Below are positions 1 to 16,142 of a DNA stretch of 25,694 nt, one piece after another; the stretch's first letter is position 1, and every line of letters begins with the position of its first letter. The stretch comes from a virus. The notes under the pieces were generated by a model. It saw only the letters and a program-made list of their open reading frames with translations. It ran no database searches and was not told the DNA's origin. A program made the position numbers and the translations under genes. The stretch spans positions 1 through 25,694 of the IMG/VR virus record IMGVR_UViG_3300037540_000014. One strand, 5' to 3'.

Positions 1-47
1 CAGACTGTATCGAGCTGGGCACGTGAAGCGTCTCCGAATGATGGCAT
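1..47 (-). CDS. Probable endolysin (peptidase M15-like), N-terminal 15 codons only
   Basis: An ATG at position 47 overlaps the TAA stop of the giant gene (TAATG). It is preceded by a strong GGAGG (plus-strand 54-58) with a 6-nt spacer. The readable product is MPSFGDASRAQLDTV, then the window ends. From memory, the pattern 'MP-x-F-G-x-x-S-x-x-x-L-x-T-V' matches the N-terminus of phage M15-family peptidases (D-Ala-D-Ala carboxypeptidase or L-Ala-D-Glu endopeptidase endolysins), which usually continue 'HPDLQ' and cut the peptide crosslinks of peptidoglycan. The catalytic Zn ligands lie outside the window, so activity cannot be judged. A lysis gene directly after an internal virion protein gene fits late-gene order in podoviruses. 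The start codon is secure; the family call rests on 15 residues. Confidence 0.6.
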   Translation of the reverse strand, partial: MPSFGDASRAQLDTV

Positions 48-3000
48 TAGGTGCCTCCAGTTTTTGCGAGCGTCTGCAACGCAGTGCCACTCAGGTCTTC
101 GTCAATCATCCTCAGAAGCTCTGCTGTTACTGGTGACTCTTCCTTCAGGCGCATCTGGTATGCCACCGAGTCATCAACGCCAAAGTTGTCGATCAGGTCA
201 ATGACATCTTCCATAGTCACATCAGCTTCACCATCTGGGTTCAGCTTTCCACCGGGGCGCAGCTCGTAGGCTTTCCTGAAGATCGTGTTGCGGCGCTTTT
301 CCAGCTCATCGATTCTTTGTTGCTTTTGCTCTGGCGTGTATCGCACTTCACCCCTCGCATCTTCGTCGGGTGTCGGCTGATAGATGCTGATCTGCATGAT
401 CGCTTTATTCAGGTCTTGAATCGCCTCTCGTGCCTTCTCCAGCGGCTTACCTATCTTGATGTACGGCAGCTCTTCGGCCTTTGTCTCCACATAGCGTTCA
501 CGCTGCTTCGTCGTTTCCAAAAACCTCAGCGAACCCTGAACCGCAGTCACCTTATCCAGCAGCCTGTACACCTCGCGCTCGTACTTGGTGCGGCGAGGTG
601 GGTTGTCGCCACGATCAAAGCTGCCACGAACAGGCCAGTCCTGAGCCTCCCACTTCGGTGGCAGCGGGTAGTCCATCATGGAGCGGGTCACTGCGTCCGC
701 AGCCATCAGCATGTACTTGCCGAACGTGCCAGTGTATCCGAGGTACAGGTGCTCAAGATGCTTGGGCGATCGCAGCTTGCCCAGACCAAAGGCATCCATG
801 CCCTGCGGCAATGCGCGAGCAAGCTCGATCATCGAAGGGCTAGTCGTATAGCTGTACTGCTCTGGCGGCATCCTCTGCTCTTGATAGAAGCTGGTGATTG
901 GGCGCTGCCTGAACGTGTCGTAATTGAACCCCATCTCAACAATAGGCATAACAGCGTGTGGCACGATGTTCATTGCGAACGTCTGCCCCATCATGTGAGC
1001 AAAGCCTCTCAGCAATTCGATGTCTGCATCACTTGCATCACTCAGGTATGCCTCAGTAAACATCTCAGGGATCGTGTTGAAGATTGCACCAACCTCAAAC
1101 GCCTTCGGCATTCTGTAGTGCTCTTCGCCAATCCAGAAGTGGTGATAGGAGTGCCTGTCCCACATCTCCAAATCTTTATAGCGCTCGTCATCACGGAACT
1201 GCATGTATAGGACCCACCCAGCAAGACCAAGTATTGCGCCCTTGATAGCAAACGCCTTCGGGTTCTCGTGAGCTGCCTTACCGAGTCGGTACAGGCCCTG
1301 CATCCGTGCGTTCATGAACGGCACGGTCGCCACAATAAATCTGATGTGTCCGTAGTCGCCGCCCATGGAAAAGTCCATCGAGTCCTTTGCCTCGAACACT
1401 GCCTGCTTCTTCGACTTACCAGCACGAATTGCTGCGTGGTAAATCGCGATTCTGTTGGCATTCTCAGAGGCGCTGGTGACGTGCCTCCATGCACGATACA
1501 GTTTGAACGGACTATCGAGAACGGTATTCGATATGTTCTGATCCTTGGTCACCCTGCGCAACAAACGCTTGGTTGCATTTGGGTCGTGCTGGGTCAGGTA
1601 GCCGTTCTCAAAAGCAGCACCAGCCCCAGTCAGAATCTGCATAGTCTCGCTTTCTACGAGTGCCTCGGCAAAACCACTCAGCGCACCACCAATCGGAACC
1701 ACCATGTCGCGACTGATGACAAATGCGTTGGCAGTATCACGAACAAGGTTACGAGCCACGAAGCCCGGATCAATTGTGATCCAGTCGGTGAACAACCGTT
1801 TCGGCCCGGTAAGCACCCCGATCCATGGGAAGAGATTATCCAGCCGCTCGATATTGATAGCCGTCATTGATCGATACAGAAGATTATTATCGGTGTAGTA
1901 GTACTCTGGCTTACCGTTCCGCAAGATCGACATGTAGCCCTTGCCGCTCGGTGCCTGCGGAGCAAACATCTTGCGCATTCCCTCGAACGTCTCAGGAGGA
2001 ATGTTATTGAGAGGGATGCCAGCTTTCTCCAGCAGGGCCTTCAGCTGACTGGCTGGAATCATGTGAGCTTTCCAGTCGTAACCAACCTTGACTATGGTGC
2101 CGGTGCCAAGCAGTGCATCAACGGCATTTGTTGCCGCATAGTTCTTCACGGCAGAGTCCATCATGTTGGTCGTTGCCATAAAGATGTTGGTGAGCACGTC
2201 ACCGATAGGACCTTCCTTGCCGCTCAGCCTGCGAATCGGTGAGCGCTGGTTAGCAATACCCACCTCTTTGTTCGACGGACCAATAAGCCTGTCATCAACT
2301 ACGCGCAGGAATGGAACCCAGTCAGCGTTCTCCCAGAGCGGCCTTGTCTCGGAGTTGATGGTCCCGGCCTCTTCACAGAAGTCCAGCATGTGCTTGTTGA
2401 AGACAGCCCAGTTTTCAGCAACCGTCTTCAGGTGCGGGAACTTATCTCCAAGACGGATAGCCGCCTCGATGCCAGCTGGCTTGAACGTCTTCTCTCGACC
2501 GGCCTCTTTGACCGTGAGACCGAACTTATGAACGATAGAGTTTACCTTGCCGCCCTTATTGATGATGACTTTGGTCGCCTTATCGTGTTGCTCCTGCTTC
2601 TTCAGAGCTATTTCAGTCAATTTGTTTGCTGACGCTCTCGCCTCTGCTTCGTTCTTGAAGTCAAAGCGTTCGACCATCTCATCGATCGTGTACTGCCACT
2701 TCGAGGCAACACCAGCTTCCCGCTGACCCTCATAGCCTGTCTCCTTCCTTCGCTTTGACTGCTGCCTGTTTGCAACACGCCAGTCAAAGATGCGCCACCG
2801 GTGACCGAACTCAAGATCAGGCTTGCCGCCTTTCTTCTTCTTGCGCCAGTGCGTGGTGCCGAGAATGTGCATCAGGTATTGACGCTCCTTCTGCGACAAG
2901 CCATCAAGCTCGGCCTCAGTAAACGAGTCATAGCGTACAGCACCAATCGTCTGCCCAACCTCGCCACGATCCCACTTGACCAGCATGTCCCACACCTGCT

Positions 3001-6000
3001 CGGCCTCAGTCTCCCCAGAGAAGATCGGCAGCAACTCACGAATCTCCCTGACCACGTGCGTAGTGCCAACGTCGCCATCAGCGTTGACGACCATCGCGTC
3101 CCAGCCTTCCAGCATCAAGCGCTTGGCACGATTGCCCACCATGAAGTCACTCCATACGTCTGGGTCGTTCATGACCGACGCAAAGACCTCTTTCATCGAC
3201 ATGCCTTCGTTCTGAACGATGCCCTCTTTCCAGACAGGCCATCCATACTCGATCACCCCCTTCATGAGCGAGTCAAGGGATGTGCTCAGTCGAGCATCAA
3301 TGTACGGGTCTTCACTAAGCTCGGCATCAATTAACGCCTTCCTCAGCCCGTAGAACTTATCGAGGTTTCCTTGCGTCTCTCTGTCCTTCCAGCCAACTCG
3401 CCATTCACTGAAGCGGTGCCACAGGCTCTTCTTGCCCCTGCGCCCAATGTTTGACCTGAACTCCTTGAGAGCCGGGTCACGATCAGGATCATAAGCAAAC
3501 GGAGCTACAGGACCAGAGAACTCTTCACGCATCTGGTCATTGATCGGAATGAAGAATGTTTTTACGCCCCTCTTGTCGAGCGGGTAGTTTCTCTCAAGGA
3601 ACTCAGCAAGAATTTGATCGGCCTCCTTCCTGCTGTCGTAGACCGTATCGGTGACAGGACCCTGCTTCTCGCTGATGATCGCCCAGCCGTGATTGCCGCC
3701 AGTCAGTTCCTTGACCTCGATGACACCATGCTGGTCTTCGATCCGAGTGTTACGAATATCCGCATCAACGAGCGCTGGCTGACCCTCTCTCCTGTAGGCT
3801 TCCTGCGAGTTGTCGATCTTGACGTACGTCTCTTGGATATACGTGCCGTACTTCTTCAGCTCCTTGTTCCAGAAGCGAACCAGCATTTCCTCGTAGGACT
3901 GCCTTGCACCTGCCAGCTTCGGCACAGCGAATGTATCCGAATACCGATTGGAGCCACGACCAACAATGATGAACAGGTTTCCACCAGTGTCTTCCTTCCG
4001 CACCAATCCCTGTGACAGAATGGCATCACCAATAGGCGCAACCCCTGTTCCAACTGGGTCTGTGCTGGCCTGCTGATTTGTACCGAGGCTGTCCTGATCA
4101 TTATTGATCAGCCATGCAAGCTCTTCATCTGATCTGGCGAAACCAACCCACCGGTTGTCTGCCCTGCGATGCACTGCCTGCGTGGTGCCCTCTTCCGTTG
4201 TGCTGATCACATACTGCGAGGTAGGATCGACATCAACATTGTCACTTGGTCGTTCTGGCAGCGCCGGTATTGGAATCTTGCCCTTGTCCTGAAGATTGAT
4301 CTGCTGCGTAGCATCAATGCCGAGCACAGGGATCATCTTGTCGCGAGCAACAACCATTGGCCTCTTCAGCTCTGGACTGCGAATGACGAAGACTTCCTGC
4401 ACCTTCCCGCGAATCGACATTTGCTCCTTGGTCCACGTGAACCGCTCTACCGAGGTAATGTCTGACTGGTCGGCAATGGCCTCACCCTCGTAGACGATAC
4501 CTCCACGAGAGGCTGATGCGAGTCCCTGATTCCAAACAATGCCACCCATGCCGCGACGTACGGCATCAGAGATCAGGTACTTGAGAGCAATGGGTCGCCA
4601 CAACTCATCCTTGGACAGTGGGTGGTCAGGCATAACCTCGTAAGACTGCATCTTCTTCTGGAGGATCACCAACTCATTGAATAAAGCGGTCGTCTGGAGC
4701 GGCTTGCCACTGATCATGGACATTGCGTCAACGATGGTGTTCGTCACCATGTCCCAGTTCACTGGAGCAGCGTCCTTCAGGCGAGCGGCTTCTTCTACCG
4801 TAGCTTGAGCAGCGTCATTGGTGTCAGAGTCAGGTCCGTATGGCTGGCCAAACGGTGGTGTTTCGTCACCGCCACGACCCCTTGAGATGTACCAGTCTGA
4901 GATCAGCTTATCGAGCCTGTTCTTTGCGTCAGTCAGTTCGGTGAAGTAGTCAACCTCTTCATCATCAATGAAGACATCGTAGGCATCGCCAGATTCCTTC
5001 GCCATGATCCTGACTTCTACATGACCGGACGCATCACCGTCTTCATCCCACTCGCTGGGCAGGCTACCAATGACGAGCGCAGATGGCCCCTCAGCATCCC
5101 ACCTTCTGCTGATTTCGTTGTAGACATCATCCATGACCTGCTCGGTCAGAACTTCGTATTTGTATTCGTTACGAGCCTCTTGCAGCCATCGTTCGGCAGC
5201 ATCGGTGTTGGCCTCGCCGTCCTCATCTATGACAACGTGGCTGAGATATTCCTCTCCTTCTCGACTGTACTCACCATCAGCTTCTTCATCCCAGTTGACG
5301 TTGTTGAACGCCTCTTCGAGTTTCTCGCTCTCAACTTCTGGGCGAGTGTCTTCCTCGAATGAGTAGTAAGTCTGAATATCCCAGTCTCTGGTGAGGTTGT
5401 CCCCCTCGCCACTTACGTCTGCCTCTTCAAGGTTGAGATAGTCTTCCAAGAAATCATAGTCGTAGCCGCTGGTGGCGTTGCCCTCCTGATCCCTACGAGC
5501 GCGAGACAACATCTTCTCGACGTTCGCGTCTCGCTGACGCTGGCCGAAGCGTGTCACAAAGTTACCAACAAGGTCCTGAGCCTTGTCTTTCATCTTGCTG
5601 ATGTCTGCCTTTCCACCAACAATATCGATGTCGATGTACTCGCCGTTGACACTGATGTTGAACGACATCGCGGACCCCTCGATGCCAACATCAACGAGGT
5701 TCGTGGAAGCAAAGATCGCCTCAGCAACCGTGGCCGCAGCTTCGTCGTTTACTTCGCTTGCACGAGCCTGTAGGTAATTGTGTATGACGGCCTTCGGCAG
5801 GCGTATGGTCGCAGTCTCCCTGCTCTCCGTGGCACCGAGTACATCAGTAACCCCACCAGTATCACCAGTGAAAAGGTCGTATATGTCGTTCAGCGGCCTC
5901 TGGAGCATGTAGCCAGCCTGCGACAATCGGAAGTGCGTTATCCTGTCTCGCGAGAACTCATTAACGATGTGGCTCATCGCTGGCTTGTGGTTTATGGCAT

Positions 6001-9000
6001 GAACAATCCCCGGCTGATTGGTGGCATCGACAAGCCCACGAACGAACTCGGTAGCTATGTGAACGTCACTTATAGCAGCAGACACAAAGCTCGCCCCAGC
6101 CCACGTATCAAGCCGCTGGAAGCCGCGAGCATCCAGCGTGCCGCCAACAACCTTCAGCTCTTCAAGCCTGTCCGCATGGTCCCTGAGCTTTTTAGTCAAG
6201 CCCTCTAGCCGCTCCAGAACATCAGTTAGCTGCACACGCTTTTCTGCATCCCAAACTTGGTACTTTTCTTCCTGACTGAGTTGATCCCATGAGCGCTGAA
6301 ATTGTTCTTGCGACCGTCGTTGCATGTTTCCTTTCAGCGAGCCTTGTAGCTCCATACCAGCAGAGCCATCGGACAGGTTAGCAATAGGCAGGAGCAGCTC
6401 TTCAATACCCTTGCTCATGTCCTCTCCAACCTTGGTTCCAAACTTTCTTGCGACAGAGTGCATGACCCCTTGCAGCTCACGCTGTCTCCGCTCTGCACGA
6501 TCTTTTTCAATCTGCGAGGTGAACGCCTTGCGTAGCTTTTGGAAGTGGTCACTCTGTAGCTCGATCAGCGACAGGAACCTGTTTGCCATTGCCGGGTTCG
6601 GGAACGTGACACCTGATATGTCGATCCCCTCCAGCAGCTCAGAGACACCAGTGCGGATGTGCATGATGTTCGGACCATAGTGCTGATTCTGTCCGGTCAT
6701 GCCACCCTGTCTGCCCTTAGTCTTAATCAGGACAACGCGAAAATCACCGCCCTTACGACTTCCCTGTGGCGAGAACTCCGAGTACTGCCTGCTGCCATTA
6801 TAGTAGTCGAACCAACGATCCTGCTTCTCATCGTAGCCAATGTCATAGCCCAGTCGCGCTGTGCGAACCTGCTCCTGCTTAATCTGCTCCATTTCCTCAT
6901 CAGTCAGCGCATCAACCTCTTCAGGTGTCAGCTTGCCGAACACCCGCTCCTGAGCTTCTGTCAAGGAGATGCCTTGGTTGGAGCCAGTCTCTTCAACGTA
7001 AACATCGAATGAGCTATCCGAGGCAAGGTGCGCCCTCATCAGGTCCTTGCTGATGTTCGTCTTCTTCGGGTTAATCTTCTGCTGCATAATCTCGGCTATG
7101 CGAGCACGCATCAGCTCAACCGAAACCTTATTGCGAACTGGTCTGGCGTTTTCGTTTCCGTATCTCGGCAACGGACCAGCCATGTACATGTCGTCCATGG
7201 CCTTGTAGATGCCGTCAAGTTCCTGCGCGACAGGAGCAGGCACCACACCTCGATACCAGTTAGTGTCGATCACGCCATTGTTGATGTGGTCAGCCCATAG
7301 GGATTGGAGGTCTCCGTAAGTAACGTCACGAAGGAACTGCCATTCACCAGTGCGTGACAGCCCTGTCAGCTCCAACTCAAGTTTCGACAGGCCCAGCCCA
7401 CCATCAGCGATAGGTTTAGCTGCCCGGTCGAATGCAGCCTGCCACTGCCCCGGAGTGCCACGCTCTGGGAACAGCGGCATCTCTTCTGGAATGGACTCCA
7501 CGCTGACGTTCTGGTCTTTGGCCCGACGCTTACGCTCACCCTTGGACAGCTTCTGCTTGCCGCTATCAACAGCAACACGCACGTTGCTGGTGAAGATATT
7601 GGCGTTGCGCATGAACGGATGAACTGTGCTGCCACCGGCTGCTCGCCACTTAAAGTCCTTCTCGCTCTTGAGGAAGTCTTGTGACCTTTGAAGCATTTGC
7701 TGCACGCGACTGTCGTTCCAGAACTTAGCTTTTTCTTCACTGATAGGAATGTAGTTGCGCCGCCTCAGAAGACCTCTGATGTAATCAATGAATCGCCGCC
7801 AAACACTCTTCTGCTTCTTGTTCATCACCAGCTGACCGGACTCAAGCTCGCCAGCGATGTAAGCGAACATCTCTTCACCAATGAGCTGCTTGTGCTCTGG
7901 GATGCTCTTGTCGAGGCCGATACCTGCTGCTGATGTCAGACGGTTGGCGTAGTAGTCAGCAAGGCGAGGGAACGCATCAACGAGTTCTGACACGTGCTCG
8001 CGCAGCGCAAGCTCATCACCAAACGCGCCACGCACACCGTAGTGACCGACCATCTCATGGACCATGACTTCAGTGAGTTCCTGATCGAAGTTGGTCTTGT
8101 CGAGATTCTGAACGAACACATAGATGCCGTTCTCAGGATTGACATGATCCATGTAACCGCGAACACCGCGCATGGTGCCGCCGCCAAGCTCTGCCCTGAT
8201 CTGATCAATGATGTGCGGGGCCTCAGCCTTGAGCTGCTGCATATCCCGAACGACATTGATCTTCGGATGGTTCGGGAACTGGAGAGCGAGACGAGATGCC
8301 TCAACGAGGGCGCGAATGTAGTCCTGCGTTGACGCTGGCTCAAGGTTCGGAACAAACTCAACCGGTCTGGCAGGCTGCTTGTAAATCTGGCTCTCGTCCA
8401 TGTACCACGGCAGTGGCGCAGAATAGTCCACATAGTCTTGATCAAGATCGGCATACCAGTCGCCATCACTATTACCAATGTGACCAATGCCAACATCAGA
8501 GAGAGTCTGCGGGAACGACTCTCGACCCGGCTGTGCGTATTCGGCATCACCAGTGATCCATGCGAGGTCAGCAGGCTTCGTGAACTTATCAACGATCAGC
8601 CAGTTCTTGTCTGGGTTGAACTTGAAGATTTTGCCCTGCACTGAAACGTACATGCGAGGTCTACCACGGTTCCGCGACATAGCCCTGACCAATCCAAAGG
8701 TCGCACCGTCAGGCGTTAGGACCTCAACGATGTCGCCCTTCTTGACTTTGTTCCTAATCTGGTTCCACGATCCGGGCAGCTTCGCATCAGGGTCCAGCTC
8801 AGCGTCAAACGCAAACATGCCAAGCCTGTATGCCTTCTGCACCCTTCCAACATTGCCACGATCAAGGTTGAGCTTCTCTGCTATTTGCCTTTGAGTGAAG
8901 CCGCGATTGGTCATCGAGACCACTTGCTGGCGAACCTCAGACGGAGTGCTCACGCCTGTTCTGACGTTCTTATCCAAAAGACCGCGACTCTTCGCCTTCT

Positions 9001-12000
9001 TCCGAAGTTTAGCCACAGCATCTTTCGTTTTGCCAAGCGCTGTCGCTATTTCCTGTCGAGTCTTACCCTGATTAAATAGGTTCGCGTACTCAGCAACAGA
9101 TGCAGCCTCCCTTAGCTTCCTGATATTTGGAAGCCCAGCGACTTTGACCTCTCGCTCAACAGTGCCTACAGAGACATCAAGCTCATTTGCTATCTCCGTA
9201 TTGGTCGCGCCATCAATGCGCATGTTAGCAATCTTCTTGAGCCTTGCCTTGCGAGAGCCTGCTACCTTTTTCAGGGAGTCGATTTTGCGAGCTGACTCAG
9301 TACGAGCAAGCTCAACAACTTGGTCAGCAAGGGATGTCGATGCTGGGAAGTCTCCAGCCTGACTATATTCTCCAGACTCCTTCACCTCGCTCGTTCCACG
9401 CACTGCATCAGGTCGCCTCCGACCTAGCGCCTCACTCAGAACATCAGCCGCATCGTAGAACTCAGCAGTAGCGCTCCTTGACCCGCTAAAGAGCGCGTCA
9501 TCAGCAATCATCTGGTCAAGCTGAGCCTCTACATCTGGGCTAACGACTTCGCCCCGCTGGAACAGCCCCTTCTGTGACTTCACCCGGTACGTGGCAGGCT
9601 CACCCTTACGCTTCGCCGTCACACCGCGCTGTATGCGCTCGCGCTTCATATCGACACCCTGAGCATCGGCCTGCTCATAGTTGTCGCCCTTGCCCCACGT
9701 GATCTGCGGAGTGATCTCATCATTGCCAGCAGCGATTGGTGTTTTCGCCAGCTTCTTGGCTGCGGCTTGCAATGCCTTCTCAACTGCCTCCTGACTCTGA
9801 CCGGCAACAGCAAACTCATCGCCACCCATGCGGTAAACCTCAACACCATCCTGCTCATTGAGCACGTCTGAGACAGCCGTCAGCAGACGATCGCCAGCAG
9901 CATGTGTCATGTTGTCATTGACCCACTTCATGGAGTCCACGTCCACAGCAGCGACCGCTGGCAGGGCATTGTCGATCTGATTCGGGGTATCGCCTTCCTT
10001 AACGTCAATATGTTCTTGTCGCTCATTGAACGCACGACGGTTCTGCACCTCGGTAAGCGGATCAGTGTACAGCAGCTGTTCACGCTGCTGAGGACCACCA
10101 GCATCCACGGCCTCTCGTACAACAGCGCCTTCCCTACCACGTCGTTCTGGTCCGGTGTAGCCACCCTCGATGCGGCTACGCAGGCCACGAGCCTGACGGT
10201 TCAGCTCCTTGGTGGCACGCTTACCCTTTGGCAGGATAATGATGGAGCCATCTTTCTTGAGCTTCGCGTAGCCCTCCTTGATCAGCTCTGCTTCCTGCTC
10301 GGCACCTATAGCCTCCATGTTCTGGACTGACTCGATAGACGAACTCAGGCGCTCGATGTCTTCGAGCTTGATGACGCTTTCGTTGACCCTGCGCTGAAGG
10401 TCGGCGCGATCAGATAGGACACGACGCTCTTCTTCCTGAAGTTCAGCTGCCGTTGTTCTCTTTGACTCGGCAACCGCTATATCAGACTTCATTGCGTTGG
10501 CACGCATGACCAGACGGTTGAGCATTTTTATCTCAGTCTCTGCCGTCTTCGTTGGTCCCTGCTTCAGGAGAAAGGCTCGCATAGGAGCCTCGGCATCAAG
10601 GATTGCCTGAGACTCTTTGCGCTGTAGCGTCTCCAGTTGTCGCAGGTCATGCAGCCTATCCTTCGGTGTCGAGTTGGCAACATACTCAGGATCAGTGATG
10701 TGCGCCTCGAACCTGAAACGCTCGTTCGTCGCCTTCTTGAACTTCACTGCTGCGCGAGCGGCATCGACATGTTCCTTGTCAACGCCAACCGGCGTGCTTG
10801 GAGACATGGACCCATACATGCCAATAGGCCCCATTGTGATAGCCGCAGTCAGGCCGGTTTCCCAGTACCTGTTCGGATCATCATAGATTGGGTTGTCAGG
10901 ATCGATAGGACGAACCGCTGCCTCTGTGTACATCAACTCCATGATTTCCTGACCAGACTCCTGAACCATCTCGCCGCCAGCACCAACGGACAGTCGTGTT
11001 GCAGCGCTCTTGTCTATCAGCCTGCCAGCAGCGCTCTTCGCGAACCTGCTGCTCATGGGCGCACCAGTAATCATGGTAACTACAGCAGCAGAGGTCGCTG
11101 CCTTGGTGGAGGCATCCTGAATGATGATCTGCTTGGACGCTTCAGGGGTAAGCCCACCCTCGCGCAGCGCCTGATACATGGCGTGCTTGTCCCATGCCTC
11201 CTGCGGTATTTGGTTCATGATCTCGCGGGTCTCATTCTCAAGATGAGTCGCTACCAGCAAGCCTTCAGAACCACCACCAAACAACATACCCGCTCTGGAT
11301 GCCGCCTTCTCGCGAGCCGTGTTCATTGCTGATGCTGTCAGTCCATACGACCCCTGCGCAGCTTTACGCGAGAAGTATCGACCAACATTACGGGTAAGCC
11401 CTATCGTCGCCCCCATTTCTGGCAACTGCTCGATGCCTTGCAAGATCAGAGACTCTGGATTGGCAACCTTTGACTCAGGGTGCGTCCACATCTCTTTTTC
11501 TGTGAGCAGCTTACGAAGCGTTATCTCTTCACCCGGCTTGAACAGCGAGTACTCGCGCTCCGCTTCCTGCTCTTCGTCGCTGAACTTCTTGCGAACATTC
11601 TCAGTAAACTCTGACGCAATCTGCGCAGGGGTCTTGCCTGTCTTCTTGCCAACCATTGGCAAAATGAAATGCTCGTACAGACTTGGCGATTTTTCAGCAT
11701 CCGACTTCCAGTTGCGAAGGTCCATTGATGCGCCGGGGTAGGCAGGTGCAACCTCACCCTCGTCATACTGGATGCCCGGAACCACGACCTCACCAGTTTC
11801 TGGATTACGAACCTCTGGCTGGAATGCCTCACGCCCACCAAGCGCACCACGCGGATCGTCAGCGCCGAAGCCAACGAGCGGAGCGCCATGAGTCCATGCG
11901 CTGCCAGCCCTTGCCAGCAACCGAGAGCCAAACTCCTTGCGTTCCTCCCACCACTCATCACCCTTGATACGATCGAACTCTTGCTCGTAATCAGGGTTCT

Positions 12001-12835
12001 GTTTGATGAGGGCCATGACTTCGTTTGCTGGCGCAAGTCCGGGGTTCTTCACGAACCTGTGGTCTTTGCCGTACCGCTCAGTAAGCGAATCGGTGATGCG
12101 CTTCTGCTCTTGCTCTGGCAGACCATTGTCAGATGTCAGCAGGAACTGCTGGAAATTGTTCCGCTTCATTATCTCGGCTTCTTTGTTCTGCAAAGAAGCC
12201 GCAGTGCCTCTGGTCGAGCCACCAGCAAGAACACCGAGCACACCACCAGTGGTGCTGCCCTGTTTGTCAATTCGATCCATGGTCTCAGGCGACATGGCCG
12301 TCCAGCGAACCTTTCCGGTCTCAGGGTCAACGATCATCTGCTGACCCATTGAGTTCACCATGCTTGCGCCATACCGGGTATTGGTGTTGCTGCTGATGAA
12401 CTCATTCTGCTGCTGACGGTTCGGTCGGTTGGCCGGGTCTCGCGTCAGCTCCATGTCAGCATCGTACTGGGACTGCGCCAGCTCGCGCTCACGCTTCTGC
12501 TGCTGTTCACCAGCCTGCGCGTACTCTTCCTTAGTCCAAGGCTGCTCTTGAGTTGGCTTGCGCAGTGCCGGACCATCTTGACGAACACCAAGCTGCTGGC
12601 TTATTTGCTCTTCACTGGCAGGTGGAGTGAGCGCAGAAGAGTCCCAGTTAAGTGGATCAGACTCGGCACTGATCTCAGCTGATCTTTCTCCGGGCGTGTA
12701 GCCTTCAGGCAGAGCGCCAGCCGTCTTGCCCTGCTGTGCAAGCATGTCTTGAAGCTGCTGAACAGCTGTAGGGTTATTGTCAGCACGCGCACTCTCAATC
12801 GCTTGCTCCAGCTGTTCACGGGTGTAGTCTGCCAC
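47..12835 (-). CDS. Giant large polyvalent protein (4262 aa), probable ejected internal virion protein with GGDEF, HTH, zincin and LPD38-like domains
   Basis: Start GTG at 12835 with AGGA 6 nt upstream, 16 nt after the preceding gene. Domain order by residue: 1-36 helical segment; about 470-690 Gly/Ala-rich hydrophobic helices; 690-890 coiled coil; 918-1085 GGDEF domain; 1198-1341 three helix-turn-helix units; 1363-1415 SH3/KOW-like strands; 1500-1690 zincin-type peptidase with HEMVGH at 1593-1598; 1793-1850 short helical domain seen in other polyvalent proteins; 1995-2112, 2690-2790 and 2930-3116 pieces of the 'QSD' polyvalent domain; 2455-2640 very acidic; 3685-4060 LPD38-like with a hydrophobic helix at 3861-3880. 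Large polyvalent proteins are known from phages and conjugative elements and are thought to enter the host with the DNA. Position after three small structural genes and before a lysis gene fits an internal virion protein. No virion RNA polymerase or methyltransferase motifs were recognised. The reading frame is open throughout. Confidence 0.9.
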   Translation of the reverse strand: MADYTREQLEQAIESARADNNPTAVQQLQDMLAQQGKTAGALPEGYTPGERSAEISAESDPLNWDSSALTPPASEEQISQQLGVRQDGPALRKPTQEQPWTKEEYAQAGEQQQKRERELAQSQYDADMELTRDPANRPNRQQQNEFISSNTNTRYGASMVNSMGQQMIVDPETGKVRWTAMSPETMDRIDKQGSTTGGVLGVLAGGSTRGTAASLQNKEAEIMKRNNFQQFLLTSDNGLPEQEQKRITDSLTERYGKDHRFVKNPGLAPANEVMALIKQNPDYEQEFDRIKGDEWWEERKEFGSRLLARAGSAWTHGAPLVGFGADDPRGALGGREAFQPEVRNPETGEVVVPGIQYDEGEVAPAYPGASMDLRNWKSDAEKSPSLYEHFILPMVGKKTGKTPAQIASEFTENVRKKFSDEEQEAEREYSLFKPGEEITLRKLLTEKEMWTHPESKVANPESLILQGIEQLPEMGATIGLTRNVGRYFSRKAAQGSYGLTASAMNTAREKAASRAGMLFGGGSEGLLVATHLENETREIMNQIPQEAWDKHAMYQALREGGLTPEASKQIIIQDASTKAATSAAVVTMITGAPMSSRFAKSAAGRLIDKSAATRLSVGAGGEMVQESGQEIMELMYTEAAVRPIDPDNPIYDDPNRYWETGLTAAITMGPIGMYGSMSPSTPVGVDKEHVDAARAAVKFKKATNERFRFEAHITDPEYVANSTPKDRLHDLRQLETLQRKESQAILDAEAPMRAFLLKQGPTKTAETEIKMLNRLVMRANAMKSDIAVAESKRTTAAELQEEERRVLSDRADLQRRVNESVIKLEDIERLSSSIESVQNMEAIGAEQEAELIKEGYAKLKKDGSIIILPKGKRATKELNRQARGLRSRIEGGYTGPERRGREGAVVREAVDAGGPQQREQLLYTDPLTEVQNRRAFNERQEHIDVKEGDTPNQIDNALPAVAAVDVDSMKWVNDNMTHAAGDRLLTAVSDVLNEQDGVEVYRMGGDEFAVAGQSQEAVEKALQAAAKKLAKTPIAAGNDEITPQITWGKGDNYEQADAQGVDMKRERIQRGVTAKRKGEPATYRVKSQKGLFQRGEVVSPDVEAQLDQMIADDALFSGSRSATAEFYDAADVLSEALGRRRPDAVRGTSEVKESGEYSQAGDFPASTSLADQVVELARTESARKIDSLKKVAGSRKARLKKIANMRIDGATNTEIANELDVSVGTVEREVKVAGLPNIRKLREAASVAEYANLFNQGKTRQEIATALGKTKDAVAKLRKKAKSRGLLDKNVRTGVSTPSEVRQQVVSMTNRGFTQRQIAEKLNLDRGNVGRVQKAYRLGMFAFDAELDPDAKLPGSWNQIRNKVKKGDIVEVLTPDGATFGLVRAMSRNRGRPRMYVSVQGKIFKFNPDKNWLIVDKFTKPADLAWITGDAEYAQPGRESFPQTLSDVGIGHIGNSDGDWYADLDQDYVDYSAPLPWYMDESQIYKQPARPVEFVPNLEPASTQDYIRALVEASRLALQFPNHPKINVVRDMQQLKAEAPHIIDQIRAELGGGTMRGVRGYMDHVNPENGIYVFVQNLDKTNFDQELTEVMVHEMVGHYGVRGAFGDELALREHVSELVDAFPRLADYYANRLTSAAGIGLDKSIPEHKQLIGEEMFAYIAGELESGQLVMNKKQKSVWRRFIDYIRGLLRRRNYIPISEEKAKFWNDSRVQQMLQRSQDFLKSEKDFKWRAAGGSTVHPFMRNANIFTSNVRVAVDSGKQKLSKGERKRRAKDQNVSVESIPEEMPLFPERGTPGQWQAAFDRAAKPIADGGLGLSKLELELTGLSRTGEWQFLRDVTYGDLQSLWADHINNGVIDTNWYRGVVPAPVAQELDGIYKAMDDMYMAGPLPRYGNENARPVRNKVSVELMRARIAEIMQQKINPKKTNISKDLMRAHLASDSSFDVYVEETGSNQGISLTEAQERVFGKLTPEEVDALTDEEMEQIKQEQVRTARLGYDIGYDEKQDRWFDYYNGSRQYSEFSPQGSRKGGDFRVVLIKTKGRQGGMTGQNQHYGPNIMHIRTGVSELLEGIDISGVTFPNPAMANRFLSLIELQSDHFQKLRKAFTSQIEKDRAERRQRELQGVMHSVARKFGTKVGEDMSKGIEELLLPIANLSDGSAGMELQGSLKGNMQRRSQEQFQRSWDQLSQEEKYQVWDAEKRVQLTDVLERLEGLTKKLRDHADRLEELKVVGGTLDARGFQRLDTWAGASFVSAAISDVHIATEFVRGLVDATNQPGIVHAINHKPAMSHIVNEFSRDRITHFRLSQAGYMLQRPLNDIYDLFTGDTGGVTDVLGATESRETATIRLPKAVIHNYLQARASEVNDEAAATVAEAIFASTNLVDVGIEGSAMSFNISVNGEYIDIDIVGGKADISKMKDKAQDLVGNFVTRFGQRQRDANVEKMLSRARRDQEGNATSGYDYDFLEDYLNLEEADVSGEGDNLTRDWDIQTYYSFEEDTRPEVESEKLEEAFNNVNWDEEADGEYSREGEEYLSHVVIDEDGEANTDAAERWLQEARNEYKYEVLTEQVMDDVYNEISRRWDAEGPSALVIGSLPSEWDEDGDASGHVEVRIMAKESGDAYDVFIDDEEVDYFTELTDAKNRLDKLISDWYISRGRGGDETPPFGQPYGPDSDTNDAAQATVEEAARLKDAAPVNWDMVTNTIVDAMSMISGKPLQTTALFNELVILQKKMQSYEVMPDHPLSKDELWRPIALKYLISDAVRRGMGGIVWNQGLASASRGGIVYEGEAIADQSDITSVERFTWTKEQMSIRGKVQEVFVIRSPELKRPMVVARDKMIPVLGIDATQQINLQDKGKIPIPALPERPSDNVDVDPTSQYVISTTEEGTTQAVHRRADNRWVGFARSDEELAWLINNDQDSLGTNQQASTDPVGTGVAPIGDAILSQGLVRKEDTGGNLFIIVGRGSNRYSDTFAVPKLAGARQSYEEMLVRFWNKELKKYGTYIQETYVKIDNSQEAYRREGQPALVDADIRNTRIEDQHGVIEVKELTGGNHGWAIISEKQGPVTDTVYDSRKEADQILAEFLERNYPLDKRGVKTFFIPINDQMREEFSGPVAPFAYDPDRDPALKEFRSNIGRRGKKSLWHRFSEWRVGWKDRETQGNLDKFYGLRKALIDAELSEDPYIDARLSTSLDSLMKGVIEYGWPVWKEGIVQNEGMSMKEVFASVMNDPDVWSDFMVGNRAKRLMLEGWDAMVVNADGDVGTTHVVREIRELLPIFSGETEAEQVWDMLVKWDRGEVGQTIGAVRYDSFTEAELDGLSQKERQYLMHILGTTHWRKKKKGGKPDLEFGHRWRIFDWRVANRQQSKRRKETGYEGQREAGVASKWQYTIDEMVERFDFKNEAEARASANKLTEIALKKQEQHDKATKVIINKGGKVNSIVHKFGLTVKEAGREKTFKPAGIEAAIRLGDKFPHLKTVAENWAVFNKHMLDFCEEAGTINSETRPLWENADWVPFLRVVDDRLIGPSNKEVGIANQRSPIRRLSGKEGPIGDVLTNIFMATTNMMDSAVKNYAATNAVDALLGTGTIVKVGYDWKAHMIPASQLKALLEKAGIPLNNIPPETFEGMRKMFAPQAPSGKGYMSILRNGKPEYYYTDNNLLYRSMTAINIERLDNLFPWIGVLTGPKRLFTDWITIDPGFVARNLVRDTANAFVISRDMVVPIGGALSGFAEALVESETMQILTGAGAAFENGYLTQHDPNATKRLLRRVTKDQNISNTVLDSPFKLYRAWRHVTSASENANRIAIYHAAIRAGKSKKQAVFEAKDSMDFSMGGDYGHIRFIVATVPFMNARMQGLYRLGKAAHENPKAFAIKGAILGLAGWVLYMQFRDDERYKDLEMWDRHSYHHFWIGEEHYRMPKAFEVGAIFNTIPEMFTEAYLSDASDADIELLRGFAHMMGQTFAMNIVPHAVMPIVEMGFNYDTFRQRPITSFYQEQRMPPEQYSYTTSPSMIELARALPQGMDAFGLGKLRSPKHLEHLYLGYTGTFGKYMLMAADAVTRSMMDYPLPPKWEAQDWPVRGSFDRGDNPPRRTKYEREVYRLLDKVTAVQGSLRFLETTKQRERYVETKAEELPYIKIGKPLEKAREAIQDLNKAIMQISIYQPTPDEDARGEVRYTPEQKQQRIDELEKRRNTIFRKAYELRPGGKLNPDGEADVTMEDVIDLIDNFGVDDSVAYQMRLKEESPVTAELLRMIDEDLSGTALQTLAKTGGT
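54..58 (-). promoter_or_regulatory. Shine-Dalgarno site of the putative endolysin
   Basis: GGAGG on the minus strand, 6 nt upstream of the ATG at 47 and inside the last codons of the giant gene. This near-ideal ribosome binding site, together with the TAATG overlap, is the main reason to call a new gene at the window edge. Confidence 0.8.
656..1783 (-). other. LPD38-like C-terminal domain of the giant protein (residues ~3685-4060)
   Basis: ITIDPGFVARNLVRDTANAF (3686-3705), SENANRIAIYHAAIRAGKSK (3790-3809) and MDFSMGGDYGHIRFIVATVP (3820-3839) match, from memory, the 'DP.F..RN..RD', 'E...R.A.Y..A...G.S...A' and 'DFS..G......PF.N' pattern of large polyvalent protein-associated domain 38. A hydrophobic helix, AFAIKGAILGLAGWVLYMQF, covers 3861-3880. 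The domain is common at the C-terminus of giant phage internal proteins; its biochemical role is unknown. Confidence 0.65.
3488..4768 (-). other. Second and third parts of the split 'QSD' polyvalent domain (residues 2690-3116)
   Basis: PDHPLSKDELWRPIALKYLI (2736-2755) and GMGGIVWNQG (2762-2771) correspond to the 'PF...W..L.LKR....A...G.D.IAWT.G' block that normally follows the QSD motif in polyvalent proteins. KTFFIPINDQMREEFSGPVA (3092-3111) followed by PFAYD matches the usual closing block 'I.ITPEMR..V..G.P.FAY'. Two small strand-strand-helix modules, each with a 'Y/F-x-S-x-x-E' turn (about 2873-2911 and 3038-3081), sit between or inside these blocks. Confidence 0.6.
4916..5473 (-). other. 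Strongly acidic segment of the giant protein (residues ~2455-2640)
   Basis: This stretch is very rich in Asp and Glu, with runs such as DYDFLEDYLNLEEADVSGEG and NVNWDEEADGEYSREGEEYL, and has few Lys or Arg. It lies at the end of the insertion that splits the QSD domain. Similar charge patterns occur in DNA-mimic anti-restriction proteins and in flexible acidic linkers; composition alone cannot separate these. Confidence 0.6.
6500..6853 (-). other. First part of the 'QSD' polyvalent domain of the giant protein (residues 1995-2112)
   Basis: YSEFSPQGSRKGGDFRVVLI (2018-2037), then HYGPNIMHIRTG (2052-2063), then LIELQSDHFQ (2090-2099). In other phage polyvalent proteins I recall the matching order 'Y.E...GG..YRE.LL', 'H...NI.AH.R' and 'IEEIQSDWHQ'. 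The function of that domain is not settled. Here the expected continuation does not follow directly but reappears after an insertion of about 580 residues. Confidence 0.65.
7766..8338 (-). other. Zincin-type metallopeptidase domain in the giant protein (residues ~1500-1690)
   Basis: VMVHEMVGHYGVRGAFGDEL surrounds an HExxH motif (His1593, Glu1594, His1598). About 55 residues later, GEEMFAYIAGEL (1653-1664) offers Glu1654 or Glu1655 as the third zinc ligand. This layout resembles the metallopeptidase domain described in polyvalent proteins. A basic helix (RRFIDYIRGLLRRR, 1680-1693) closes the domain. Possible substrates are the giant protein itself, other ejected proteins or host targets; nothing in the sequence chooses among them. 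Confidence 0.75.
8813..9244 (-). other. Three tandem helix-turn-helix units in the giant protein (residues 1198-1341)
   Basis: Three similar segments each read as helix, turn, recognition helix: around TNTEIANELDVSVGTVEREV (1211-1230), TRQEIATALGKTKDAVAKLR (1259-1278) and TQRQIAEKLNLDRGNVGRVQ (1314-1333). Each has the 'T-x-x-E/Q-I-A-x-x-L' core typical of resolvase, sigma-4 or LuxR-like HTH folds. They are spaced roughly 50 residues apart, which suggests internal duplication. DNA binding is the likely role. Whether the target is phage DNA (packaging or ejection) or host DNA is not shown. Confidence 0.75.
9581..10084 (-). other. GGDEF (diguanylate cyclase-type) domain within the giant protein (residues 918-1085)
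   Basis: The signature blocks of GGDEF domains appear in the right order and spacing. TDPLTEVQNRRAF (924-936) matches the entry motif. DVDSMKWVND (965-974) supplies the metal-ligand Asp965 and guanine-contact Asn973. HAAGD (978-982) supplies Asp982. RMGGDEF (1002-1008) is an intact active-site loop. The C-terminal part (about 1040-1085) is shortened and less typical. There is no RxxD inhibitory site just before GGDEF. By known family chemistry this domain would condense two GTP into c-di-GMP. The residues permit activity, but the degenerate C-terminus could mean a nucleotide-binding role only. Confidence 0.85.
10766..11428 (-). other. Gly/Ala-rich hydrophobic helical region of the giant protein (residues ~470-690)
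   Basis: Several hydrophobic, Gly/Ala-rich stretches occur here, for example around residues 513-530, 577-593 and 660-678, separated by charged amphipathic segments. Such regions are common in phage internal proteins that contact membranes during DNA ejection. Membrane contact is inferred from composition only; no single stretch is a textbook transmembrane helix. Confidence 0.45.
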
Positions 12836-13751: not shown

Positions 13752-14407
13752 TTCTTTTTTCCTCCGAAGAGCCTGTCATAAACACTACCGGCTATTGCCT
13801 CGATGTCGGCCTCACTCTCAACGCCCTGCACATTCATCATCATTTGCATCATGCGAGTTGCGCCATCCTCATCGGAAATCGTGCCATTATTGATTTCCTT
13901 CCTTGTGAGGTTGGCGAACGGCGATACAATGGCCTGTTCTATTAACTCATCCTGATCGGCCTTGCTTTTAATCCCCATCGCTTCATTAAGCTGGTTGCCA
14001 GCACGCCTTACCTCTTCCGGGTCCATCTTGGCAAACTCACCAGTCTTGCCGCTGGCAGCATTCAATGCCCTACCCATAAATTGCATGGCCTTCTTCGATC
14101 CCAGTTTTTCCATGCTGCTATTCCAATACTCCATGGGGGTGCCACGGTCCTGTACTAGATCAAGATTGGCACCCGCACCGCCCTGCCGTTCGTTTGCTCC
14201 GTCTTGGGACAGGGGTGCGCCCTCAACTTGTGCGTTGCCACCGGGAGGTGGTGCGGGTGCCAAAGCTGGTCCACCTGATTGCATTGGTGGTATCGCGCCA
14301 GTGCCAACACCACCCGTTACTGATGGTGGGGCACCTGTAAGAGCTGGTGATGCTGCGTTCGTTTGTGTCGGCATGGCATTTATCAGTTCGTCCTGTTTGC
14401 CAATCAT
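13748..14407 (-). CDS. Putative structural protein with Pro/Gly-rich N-terminus, 219 aa
   Basis: Unrecognised. The ATG at 14407 overlaps the previous stop (ATGA); GGAGA lies 7 nt upstream. Residues 16-80 are rich in Pro, Gly and Ala (for example PALAPAPPPGGNAQVEG) and probably disordered. Residues 90-215 are mostly helical, with a Met-rich patch RMMQMMMNVQG (185-195), and the protein ends GGKKK. There are no transmembrane segments and no enzyme motif. It is tightly coupled on both sides to other structural-looking genes, so it is likely a minor virion or internal core protein, possibly an assembly partner of the 299-aa and giant proteins. Confidence 0.85.
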   Translation of the reverse strand: MIGKQDELINAMPTQTNAASPALTGAPPSVTGGVGTGAIPPMQSGGPALAPAPPPGGNAQVEGAPLSQDGANERQGGAGANLDLVQDRGTPMEYWNSSMEKLGSKKAMQFMGRALNAASGKTGEFAKMDPEEVRRAGNQLNEAMGIKSKADQDELIEQAIVSPFANLTRKEINNGTISDEDGATRMMQMMMNVQGVESEADIEAIAGSVYDRLFGGKKK

Positions 14408-15552
14408 GATTGGTCTCCAAAGAGCTTGCCGTAATCAACGAGCAAGAATCCGTCTGGACCCATCGCACTAATATCTGGGTTCTCTTGAGCAATAACGCCG
14501 AAGCTATTTCCAGCCTCACCCAAAGCTACCGCAACCGAGTTCCATGTCCACGTGTAAAACCTGCGGCCCATGAGCGTGAAAAGGTAAATGATGTTTTCTT
14601 TTAGCCTTTGGTCGCTTGGGGTGCTTCCTTCCCTGAACCAGTCAGGCGCTTCGTCTCCGCCGCCTCCGCTGTCGGCAACTGCTTTAGCTCCTTGAGTGAG
14701 AGCAAGGGATGCACCGCCCGTGTATGCCGCTGCTACCACCTGTGCGATGCCGCCAATAACTGCGGCAGCATTACCACCGCTCGTTTTGCTTTCGCCGGTC
14801 TGGGTAGTTGAGTACGACCCCTTGGTGCCCTCCAGTGCGGAGACCACGCCCATCAGCTGCTTCCAATCCCAGTCACGCTCTTCAACGAACTGCTGCCAAT
14901 CGAAGTCCAGCATTGCCTGCTGCACGTTACGGTCAGTAGCGCCAGTAGTCATGAGTGTGGAGATGTCCATCCGAGATGAGTCTTGCACCTGCCCGCCAAG
15001 CTGCTGGAACCGTCCTGCCGCTTGTAAGTCGCGTGCTCGCTCATCACCGAATATCTGAGCACCGAAGTTGTATGCGTCAGCATAGCCCTTACCGTACAGG
15101 TCTTCGATTCCTTGCAGAGTCTTCTCACGGTTCTCAGAGCGCAAGAGAGCCGCTCTGCTGCCACCGAAGGCATCCATGGATGCAGCTCTGGAGTCGAGTG
15201 CGTTCGCGCCTCTCGCGCCTTCCTCGCGTATCTCACGAGCTGCTGGGTCCAATGCGCCCTTGATATACGGGTTTATGAACCGAGACTGGTCAGCATCAGC
15301 CCATGATGTAGCGCCTCGATCAGCATACGTCTCGGCCTTGTCGTAATAAGGCTGAGCAATGCCAACATTCTCACGGGCCATCTCAACGCCCATCCGCTCA
15401 TTCTCAGACAAACCAGCAACACGATCGCCGGTATAGGCTTCGTATTGCTTCCTACCTATCCTCTGACCTATGCCTATAGCTTGCTGAGATGCGCCCTCAA
15501 CCCAGCTTGGCGGCGTGTAGGTTTGTTTCGATTTGGTTTTCTTGCTTCCCAC
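14404..15552 (-). CDS. Virion-associated protein with C-terminal S74-like module, ~382 aa
   Basis: The longest frame opens with GTG at 15579. The GTG at 15552 is preferred because AGGAG lies 8 nt upstream of it. From that start the product is 382 aa, beginning MGSKKTKSKQTYTPPSWVEG. Residues below are counted from the 15579 start. Residues 100-190 hold a pattern I know from a widespread phage family: 'NPY', then 'AFGGSRAALLRSE', then 'G..DAYNFGAQIFGDERARD'. Residues 268-305 are Gly/Ala-rich and hydrophobic. The C-terminus has PSDQRLKENI (321-330), then YTWTW, GVIAQE and VDYGKL, the core of the Peptidase_S74 or endosialidase chaperone fold in short form. S74 modules usually release themselves from trimeric tail spikes; here the host protein looks like an internal or core protein. 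Confidence 0.85.
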   Translation of the reverse strand: MGSKKTKSKQTYTPPSWVEGASQQAIGIGQRIGRKQYEAYTGDRVAGLSENERMGVEMARENVGIAQPYYDKAETYADRGATSWADADQSRFINPYIKGALDPAAREIREEGARGANALDSRAASMDAFGGSRAALLRSENREKTLQGIEDLYGKGYADAYNFGAQIFGDERARDLQAAGRFQQLGGQVQDSSRMDISTLMTTGATDRNVQQAMLDFDWQQFVEERDWDWKQLMGVVSALEGTKGSYSTTQTGESKTSGGNAAAVIGGIAQVVAAAYTGGASLALTQGAKAVADSGGGGDEAPDWFREGSTPSDQRLKENIIYLFTLMGRRFYTWTWNSVAVALGEAGNSFGVIAQENPDISAMGPDGFLLVDYGKLFGDQS

Positions 15553-16003
15553 TGGCTTCACTCCTGATGAAGTCACCACCGAGATACTGATAACCGTGAT
15601 GCTGGAATAGCTTGTCCTTCAACAAGACCTTCGCATCAGCAGCCGACACCCCGGCAACTATTGGTGCATCGTGCTCGTCAGCGTAAGCATGGGTGGCTGT
15701 CAACAGCGCCTCAAATGCCCCACCTTTCCGAAACTTCTTCTGCACATAGAGCCACTCCAAATACATGTACCACTTAGGTGACCACGGAAATTGATAGTTG
15801 GTGAGAGCCAGTGTCCCCACCAGTCTGCCGGACACGTCAGCTACTAGAACGTAGCCGTCTTCTAGGGTCCGTGTTATCCATCGAATGCCGATGGTGTGAT
15901 CGACTGGTGGGTAAGCGCTTCCTTCGTCGTGACACTCGATCAGAAGTCGAGCGATATTTGAAGTGTCTAAGGGCTTAGCCGGTCTGATCTTAATCGTGGT
16001 CAT
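15497..16003 (-). CDS. GNAT-family N-acetyltransferase, 168 aa
   Basis: The ATG at 16003 follows the stop of the small membrane protein gene by 1 nt; AGGGGG sits 4 nt upstream. The fold pattern is GNAT: IKIRPAKPLDTSNIARLL at the N-terminus, then VLVADVSGRLVGTLALTNY (strands 2-3), then YLEWLYVQKKFRKGGAFEAL, which is motif A with the acetyl-CoA-binding R/Q-x-x-G-x-G/A loop as RKGGA (92-96), and a final HHGYQYLGG strand. The family transfers acetyl from acetyl-CoA to an amine. The substrate cannot be read from the sequence. GNAT genes occur in the structural clusters of several podoviruses, where their role is unclear. The last ~20 residues extend beyond the usual fold and overlap the next gene. 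Confidence 0.85.
   Translation of the reverse strand: MTTIKIRPAKPLDTSNIARLLIECHDEGSAYPPVDHTIGIRWITRTLEDGYVLVADVSGRLVGTLALTNYQFPWSPKWYMYLEWLYVQKKFRKGGAFEALLTATHAYADEHDAPIVAGVSAADAKVLLKDKLFQHHGYQYLGGDFIRSEASGKQENQIETNLHAAKLG
15561..15565 (-). promoter_or_regulatory. Shine-Dalgarno site deciding the start of the S74-like protein gene
   Basis: AGGAG on the minus strand, 8 nt upstream of the GTG at 15552. No comparable site precedes the in-frame GTG codons at 15579 and 15576. This shortens the overlap with the acetyltransferase gene from 83 to 56 nt. Confidence 0.6.
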
Positions 16004-16135: not shown

Positions 16136-16142
16136 CTCTCCT
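16136..16142 (-). promoter_or_regulatory. Shine-Dalgarno site of the 41-aa membrane protein
   Basis: AGGAGAG on the minus strand, overlapping the TAG stop of the 1907-aa gene and 5 nt upstream of ATG 16130. It fixes the start of the small gene. Confidence 0.75.

What the first reader, a model, noticed from the sequence alone, without database searches (positions are those of the whole stretch)
9581..10084. Diguanylate cyclase-type GGDEF domain inside a phage virion-type protein
Asp965, Asn973, Asp982 and the GGDEF loop (1004-1008) are all intact, so the residues needed for metal and guanine binding are present, and the RxxD feedback site is absent. A phage that injects an unrestrained cyclase could raise c-di-GMP at the start of infection, altering motility, biofilm or c-di-GMP/CBASS-type signalling. 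Alternatively the domain may bind host nucleotides as a sensor or sponge. The shortened C-terminal part is a caution.
Basis: partly seen in the sequence, partly recalled or inferred. Interest (0 to 1): 0.85.

Follow-up and report, generated by a model that had tools for sequence, protein, structure and literature searches.

The report
Phage-specific compact GGDEF domain family
A giant phage protein that is probably injected into the host carries an intact-looking enzyme domain for making the bacterial signal c-di-GMP; it belongs to a compact, phage-only branch of that enzyme family found in many uncultured phages and, as a free small protein, in well-studied Pseudomonas phages where it can be tested.

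Summary
The 4262-aa minus-strand ORF (47-12835) contains a GGDEF domain at residues ~918-1082, with the stated residues and numbering intact and no RxxD I-site. A GGDEF domain in an injected 'polyvalent' protein is not new as an idea: Iyer et al. 2017 proposed it.

The 'shortened C-terminus' is not decay. It marks a phage-specific clade of compact GGDEF domains. In 78 aligned members the metal Asp and base-binding Asn are invariant and the triphosphate Lys is kept in 77; the I-site is missing in 77. A loop 9-10 residues shorter than in 64 canonical domains separates them, and trees split the two sets cleanly. Most members sit in giant proteins (69 of 79 ORFs exceed 1000 aa). One clade is free-standing (YuA gp44 type). 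The family is nearly absent from bacterial genomes. AlphaFold gives a confident diguanylate-cyclase fold, and the domain evolves under strong purifying selection.

In 8 of 14 InPase-bearing relatives an inorganic-pyrophosphatase domain lies within 60 residues of the GGDEF domain (0.7 expected), as fits a PPi-releasing cyclase.

Best reading: a catalytically competent, feedback-free cyclase, most likely making c-di-GMP early in infection. Product and benefit are untested. New variant of a known kind.

The parts
47..12835 (-). Giant 'polyvalent' virion/ejection-type protein, 4262 aa, GTG start
   Evidence: LPD38 and two PHROG families of >1600-aa phage proteins at the C-terminus
9590..10084 (-). 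Compact GGDEF domain, residues 918-1082
   Evidence: Pfam PF00990 E 2.8e-11; alignments A1/A2; AF2 + Foldseek
9812..9826 (-). GGDEF signature loop, residues 1004-1008
   Evidence: GDEF in 78/78 aligned relatives (partly selected by one search pattern, see report)
9941..9943 (-). Asp965, metal ligand (PleD D327 equivalent)
   Evidence: invariant 78/78
9917..9919 (-). Asn973, guanine contact (PleD N335 equivalent)
   Evidence: invariant 78/78
9890..9892 (-). Asp982, guanine contact (PleD D344 equivalent)
   Evidence: D in 67/78, N 6, T 5
9644..9646 (-). Lys1064, triphosphate contact (PleD K442 equivalent by the ADxxxxxxK spacing)
   Evidence: K in 77/78
9581..9718 (-). Remodelled short C-terminus (residues 1040-1085): last strand joined by a 7-residue loop to the last helix, then the phage-specific G-x-R-A-x-R-G-x-x-P region (diverged in this protein: RGVTAKRKGEP)
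   Evidence: spacing G1048..A1056 is 7 in 74/78 phage domains against 11-21 in 64 canonical domains
10322..10549 (-). Predicted 76-residue helix (residues 763-838), possible dimerising coiled coil upstream of the cyclase
   Evidence: AF2 model of residues 700-1100, low pTM 0.46
10163..10303 (-). Winged-helix-like element (residues ~845-891) between helix and GGDEF domain
   Evidence: AF2 secondary structure H-E-E-H and conserved 'EGYA..ILPKGRRA.KEL'; fold not searched
8822..9280 (-). Helix-turn-helix repeats (residues 1186-1338) in an insertion absent from the closest relatives
   Evidence: HTH_23, Sigma70_r4_2, HTH_28; absent in L002
8042..8059 (-). Zincin-type HEMVGH motif (residues 1593-1598), possible processing protease
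   Evidence: HExxGH in 23 of 66 giants; family assignment by motif only
629..1189 (-). LPD38 domain (residues 3883-4069)
   Evidence: Pfam E 1.4e-30
14404..15579 (-). DNA ejection protein homologue in the same module
   Evidence: phrog_4287 E 8e-23; same order in relative L002

Best explanation
The domain is a catalytically competent nucleotide cyclase of a phage-specific compact GGDEF clade. It rides inside a giant protein that is packaged in the virion and delivered with the DNA, and as a dimer it converts GTP to c-di-GMP (2 GTP -> c-di-GMP + 2 PPi) in the newly infected cell. It lacks the I-site, so it is not shut off by its product; in several relatives a neighbouring pyrophosphatase domain removes the PPi. 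A zincin protease in the same protein may cut the domain free. The c-di-GMP pulse would push the host away from motility and/or interfere with nucleotide-signalling defences during takeover. Shown by sequence and structure prediction: the domain, its fold, the intact active site, the clade, the selection, the pyrophosphatase adjacency. Inferred: packaging and injection, dimerisation, c-di-GMP as product, benefit to the phage.
For: Profile matches above curated cut-offs. D965 and N973 invariant in 78/78, K1064 in 77/78, D982 in 67/78. Among 41 loci found through the separate DSLKW motif with the region covered, 40 keep [SGA]GDEF and one has SGDEY. I-site absent in 77/78. AF2 pLDDT 89.5, pTM 0.84; leading PDB hits are diguanylate cyclases or GGDEF domains, best SiaD 7e6g E 6.6e-10. 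dN/dS of the domain 0.09-0.12, the lowest of four regions of the protein in two comparisons and of those computable in the third. InPase domain within 60 aa of the GGDEF domain in 8 of 14 relatives against 0.69 expected, none of 20,000 random placements as high, on either side and with at least 10 changes of InPase presence on the GGDEF tree. A free-standing clade shows that the domain works as an independent unit. SGDEF and AGDEF variants, common in the clade, include known active cyclases (PMC3974145). Bordetella phage LK3, which carries the free-standing form, made lysogens with hyperbiofilm (PMC8471281).
Against: No biochemistry exists for any member. Product specificity cannot be read from sequence. 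The same LK3 lysogens had elevated motility, which is not what high c-di-GMP predicts. The C-terminal R446-equivalent is not certain. Packaging is inferred; no virion proteomics covers a GGDEF-bearing giant, and mass fingerprinting of the LPD38 relative PTXU04 assigned four bands that did not include its giant protein. This protein itself has no InPase match. Few copies per virion would limit the amount of product.
Confidence: 0.58

Rival explanations
1. The domain is an active nucleotidyltransferase of GGDEF fold, but the product is not c-di-GMP: 3',3'-cGAMP, another cyclic or linear dinucleotide used as a decoy or competitor against cyclic-nucleotide defences (CBASS, type III CRISPR, Panoptes), or a nucleotide added to a protein.
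For: The position that reads the base (D982) is N or T in 11 of 78 relatives; Hypr GGDEF enzymes with Ser there make cGAMP (PMC6456294). The remodelled C-terminus is unique to phages. Panoptes shows that cyclic dinucleotides can act as decoys in phage defence (PMC12657218). Polyvalent proteins carry other anti-defence domains (PMC5512222).
Against: In this protein both guanine-reading residues (N973, D982) are the canonical ones, which predicts GTP. In the 11 variants N or T was seen, not Ser. No phage member has been tested.
Confidence: 0.2
2. Non-catalytic: the domain binds GTP or c-di-GMP as a sensor, a sponge, or a structural or dimerisation module of the ejection protein.
For: About a quarter of known DGCs have degenerate sites and some act as receptors (PMC3974145). 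The domain is one module among many in a structural protein.
Against: The I-site, the usual c-di-GMP binding site of degenerate GGDEF receptors, is missing in 77/78, while metal ligand, motif Glu and triphosphate Lys are invariant or nearly so, and InPase sits next to it repeatedly. Receptors normally lose the motif and keep the I-site; this family shows the reverse.
Confidence: 0.15
3. A recently captured host diguanylate cyclase that is decaying (the short C-terminus being damage).
For: The Pfam match is truncated (2-128 of 161).
Against: The shortening is shared by 74 of 78 phage domains from many phages, the clade is cleanly separated from canonical domains (SH support 0.993 on the full domain, 80 on the core alone), and the domain is under strong purifying selection.
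Confidence: 0.03

Closest known systems
GGDEF domains of phage polyvalent proteins (Iyer et al. 2017, PMC5512222)
   Same: GGDEF inside giant multidomain phage proteins thought to be packaged and injected; the authors proposed cyclic-nucleotide signalling or interference with host responses, and for InPase domains the clearing of PPi.
   Different: They called GGDEF 'not very widespread' and discussed GGDEF and InPase separately. In the passages read they do not describe a compact phage clade, its deletion, its link to YuA gp44 or the GGDEF-InPase adjacency; their figures and supplements were not examined.
YuA-like phage gp44 (Yuavirus, Vojvodinavirus; MP1412, PaSz-4, CN2, LK3)
   Same: Same compact clade: 34-36% identity over the whole domain including the short C-terminus; annotated as diguanylate-cyclase GGDEF protein, 'putative role in host cell conversion'.
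   Different: Free-standing 152-156-aa proteins encoded outside the structural genes of siphophages; motif SGDEF or AGDEF; not fused to an ejection protein.
Canonical diguanylate cyclases (PleD, WspR, DosC, SiaD, SadC)
   Same: Fold, metal and base-binding residues, GG(D/E)EF loop, triphosphate Lys.
   Different: Loop before the last helix is 9-10 residues shorter; no I-site; phage-specific RAxRGxxPP tail in place of the usual GRN end; no sensory input domain recognised.
Bacillus phage G gp350 and other phage-borne canonical GGDEF proteins
   Same: GGDEF encoded by a phage.
   Different: They fall on the canonical side of the tree with the long loop.

Membership tests
GGDEF domain (Pfam PF00990) | Score above the curated cut-off | tested here: met
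   43.9 bits against 23.8
GGDEF domain (Pfam PF00990) | GGDEF/diguanylate cyclase fold | tested here: met
   AF2 model pLDDT 89.5; leading PDB matches are GGDEF domains or diguanylate cyclases, E from 6.6e-10
Active diguanylate cyclase | Metal ligands, base-binding Asn/Asp, (G/S/A)G(D/E)EF loop, triphosphate Lys | tested here: met
   D965, N973, D982, GGDEF, K1064 present; near-invariant in the clade. The Arg equivalent to PleD R446 is not securely aligned.
Active diguanylate cyclase | Forms c-di-GMP from GTP as a dimer | not testable with these tools
   Needs an enzyme assay; a predicted long helix upstream is only suggestive
Active diguanylate cyclase | Product inhibition through an RxxD I-site (common, not universal) | tested here: not met
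   absent here and in 77/78 relatives
Phage polyvalent protein (Iyer et al. 2017) | Very long multidomain phage protein with LPD-type domains and unrelated catalytic domains | tested here: met
   LPD38, GGDEF, HTH repeats, zincin motif in one 4262-aa chain
Phage polyvalent protein (Iyer et al. 2017) | Packaged in the virion and injected | not testable with these tools
   Supported only by gene position behind ejection-protein homologues
Compact phage GGDEF clade (defined here) | 7-residue spacing G1048-A1056, (S/A)-L/M-K-W motif, monophyly | tested here: met
   spacing 7 in the window; groups with five relatives at 100 and with 18 at 97 SH-aLRT; whole clade split from 64 canonical domains

The most novel reading that the evidence does not exclude
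A large phage-only clade of minimal GGDEF enzymes is a general phage weapon or control device: delivered in the virion by giant ejection proteins and made as a free protein by YuA-like phages, it floods the cell with a cyclic dinucleotide from the first minutes, free of feedback control and pulled forward by a fused pyrophosphatase, to override host signalling or to blind cyclic-nucleotide immunity.
Probability: 0.3. Interest if true: 0.85.

Novelty: new variant of a known kind. Interest (0 to 1): 0.58.

Why it matters
Phages are known to destroy or soak up cyclic nucleotides; a widespread family that makes one, carried in the particle itself, would be the opposite strategy. The link to YuA gp44, a small free protein in cultured Pseudomonas phages, turns an untestable metagenomic observation into a simple experiment on a 156-aa protein. 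The adjacent pyrophosphatase domain gives a concrete mechanistic prediction. It also corrects annotation: the 'shortened' C-terminus is a family trait, not damage.

Tried and rejected
Decay of a captured host cyclase: rejected, because the deletion is clade-wide with intact catalytic residues and purifying selection. Chance motif match: rejected. Orthology of the GGDEF-bearing part with cultured LPD38 podophages (Vibrio 1.232, PTXU04, phiARM81mr, CF418P1): these match only the C-terminal ~750 residues and a short 87-residue stretch, and not the GGDEF part. Search for a bacterial source: the first genome-contig scan gave no relatives; the second gave about eight, mostly in short MAG contigs that look like phage, the remaining matches checked being canonical GGDEF proteins. 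A plasmid search gave ordinary GGDEF/EAL proteins. InPase in this window's own protein: looked for, not found. The model of residues 700-1100 has low pTM (0.46), so the arrangement of helix, winged helix and GGDEF is not relied on. GDEF conservation of 78/78 is partly circular because one search pattern contains GDEF; the independent figure is 40 of 41 from the DSLKW pattern. The InPase adjacency set contains some related pairs (L026/L030), so its P value is only indicative. Near-identical contigs (six pairs) inflate the 78 to about 72 distinct domains.

Full report
What is there. The minus-strand ORF 47-12835 encodes one uninterrupted 4262-residue protein. Its GGDEF domain lies at residues 918-1082 (window 9590-10084). 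Pfam GGDEF gives E 2.8e-11 and 43.9 bits against a cut-off of 23.8, and TIGR00254 also passes its cut-off.

Context. The window is a 25.7-kb virus record. The C-terminus of the protein carries LPD38 (residues 3883-4069) and matches the C-terminal ends of two PHROG families of phage proteins more than 1600 residues long. The gene follows a module with a virion structural protein, a large tail-fibre-like protein and a DNA-ejection-protein homologue; the close relative L002 (IMG/VR, 70.4 kb) has the same ejection-protein homologue upstream and an endolysin just downstream of its giant gene. This is the 'polyvalent protein' arrangement of Iyer et al. 2017. That paper explicitly reports GGDEF domains in such proteins and proposes cyclic-nucleotide signalling or interference, so the basic idea of the finding is already published.

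The short C-terminus is a clade marker. tblastn with the domain first hit YuA-like siphophages, whose gp44-type proteins of 152-156 aa align over the whole domain including the short end. Two viral-contig scans gave a large family: 201 relatives by E-value in the second scan, 80 kept. Of 79 ORFs examined, 69 exceed 1000 aa (up to more than 4400 aa) and six are free-standing, 154-260 aa. Seventy-eight domains were aligned with 64 canonical GGDEF domains taken from bacterial genomes and phage-borne canonical proteins. The spacing between G1048 and A1056 is 7 in 74 of 78 phage domains but 11-21 (mostly 16-18) in the canonical ones. A tree of the full domain separates the two sets completely (SH support 0.993, branch length 0.81), and so does a tree made only from the core, which leaves out the deletion (SH-aLRT 80). 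The free-standing proteins form one clade within the family (support 99).

The family is phage-specific. The first scan of 84,980 bacterial and archaeal species genomes found no relative. The second found about eight, mostly in short metagenome-assembled contigs; at least two come from ORFs longer than 2700 codons. Among 50,697 phage records the strong, nearly full-length hits are the YuA-like group; no record with a GGDEF-bearing giant protein was seen among the rows listed.

The active site is kept. In the 78 domains D965 and N973 are invariant, K1064 is K in 77, D982 is D in 67 (N in 6, T in 5), and the first residue of the motif is S in 57, G in 20 and A in 1. Because one search pattern contained GDEF, the unbiased figure comes from the other motif: of 41 loci carrying DSLKW[VI]N with the region covered, 40 keep the motif and one has SGDEY. 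SGDEF and AGDEF enzymes are known to be active (ECA3270, VCA0965; PMC3974145; MbaA, PMC8079147). The I-site is absent in 77 of 78. The equivalences to PleD numbering rest on established knowledge of that enzyme.

Fold. AlphaFold2 on 16 family members gave pLDDT 89.5 and pTM 0.84. Foldseek against the PDB returned diguanylate cyclases or GGDEF domains at the top: SiaD 7e6g E 6.6e-10, then DosC, T. maritima GGDEF and others. Among viral models the matches include Bordetella phage CN1's free-standing protein (TM-score 0.67/0.81). Upstream of the domain a second model suggests a 76-residue helix and a winged-helix-like element, but with low overall confidence.

Selection. Against L002 (77% identical in the domain) dN/dS is 0.094 in the GGDEF domain compared with 0.13-0.20 in three other regions. 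Against L041 the domain is again lowest (0.124 against 0.14-0.23); against L040 it is 0.103 compared with 0.154 for the one other region that was not saturated. The domain is under constraint and is the best preserved of the regions compared.

A mechanistic clue. Pfam scans of 32 giant relatives found the polyvalent-protein inorganic pyrophosphatase (InPase, PF18823) in 8, and an iterated profile search found it in 15 of the 80 proteins searched. In 8 of 14 measurable cases it lies within 60 residues of the GGDEF domain, on either side; random placement predicts 0.69 and never reached 8 in 20,000 trials. On the GGDEF tree the presence of InPase needs at least 10 changes, so the association arose or was kept repeatedly. 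GGDEF cyclases release two PPi per c-di-GMP, and Iyer et al. already suggested that InPase could clear PPi from nucleotidyltransferase reactions. This supports a PPi-releasing reaction, though this window's own protein has no InPase match.

Interpretation. The best-supported reading is a competent, product-insensitive cyclase delivered with the virion. GTP specificity is predicted by N973 and D982, hence c-di-GMP as the likely product. What is inferred and not shown: packaging, dimerisation, product, timing, benefit. The only related phenotype in the literature read is ambiguous: Bordetella phage LK3 lysogens, which carry the free-standing form, produced more biofilm but also more motility (PMC8471281).

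Novelty and score. GGDEF in polyvalent proteins and in YuA-like phages is known. That these are one phage-only clade with a defining deletion, a remodelled tail, lost I-site and strictly kept catalytic residues, repeatedly joined to a pyrophosphatase, was not found in the literature searched here, which covers open-licence papers only. New variant of a known kind; interest 0.58.

Noticed in passing
window 8822-9280 (-), residues 1186-1338: About 270 residues inserted right after the GGDEF domain carry several helix-turn-helix repeats (HTH_23, HTH_28, Sigma70_r4; weak match to CRISPR-repeat-binding protein Cbp1, NCBIfam E 5.6e-6) and are absent from the closest relatives L002 and L040.
   Followed up: partly
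window 15500-16003 (-): A GNAT-type acetyltransferase gene (phrog_1249, Pfam Acetyltransf_1) sits inside the tail/ejection module.
   Followed up: no
window 16141-21864 (-): A 1907-aa protein with a laminin-G/concanavalin-like domain, probably a tail fibre, upstream of an S74 endosialidase-chaperone-type protein (14404-15579).
   Followed up: no
L060, L069, L070, L071, L101 (T); L023, L091, L094, L098 and others (N): In 11 of 78 relatives the guanine-reading Asp (D982 here) is Thr or Asn; Ser at this place makes Hypr enzymes produce cGAMP, so some phages may make a different dinucleotide.
   Followed up: partly
L110, L112 (Oxalobacteraceae MAG contigs): Copies of the compact domain with a broken motif (SGAEF in L110) or a divergent tail (L112) in short reading frames, probably decaying prophage remnants.
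   Followed up: no
L058, L065, L089, L097, L099, L100: Diverged family members without the DSLKW signature (e.g. DGLKY, DGMKT, NSFKH), suggesting the clade is wider than the patterns used here.
   Followed up: no
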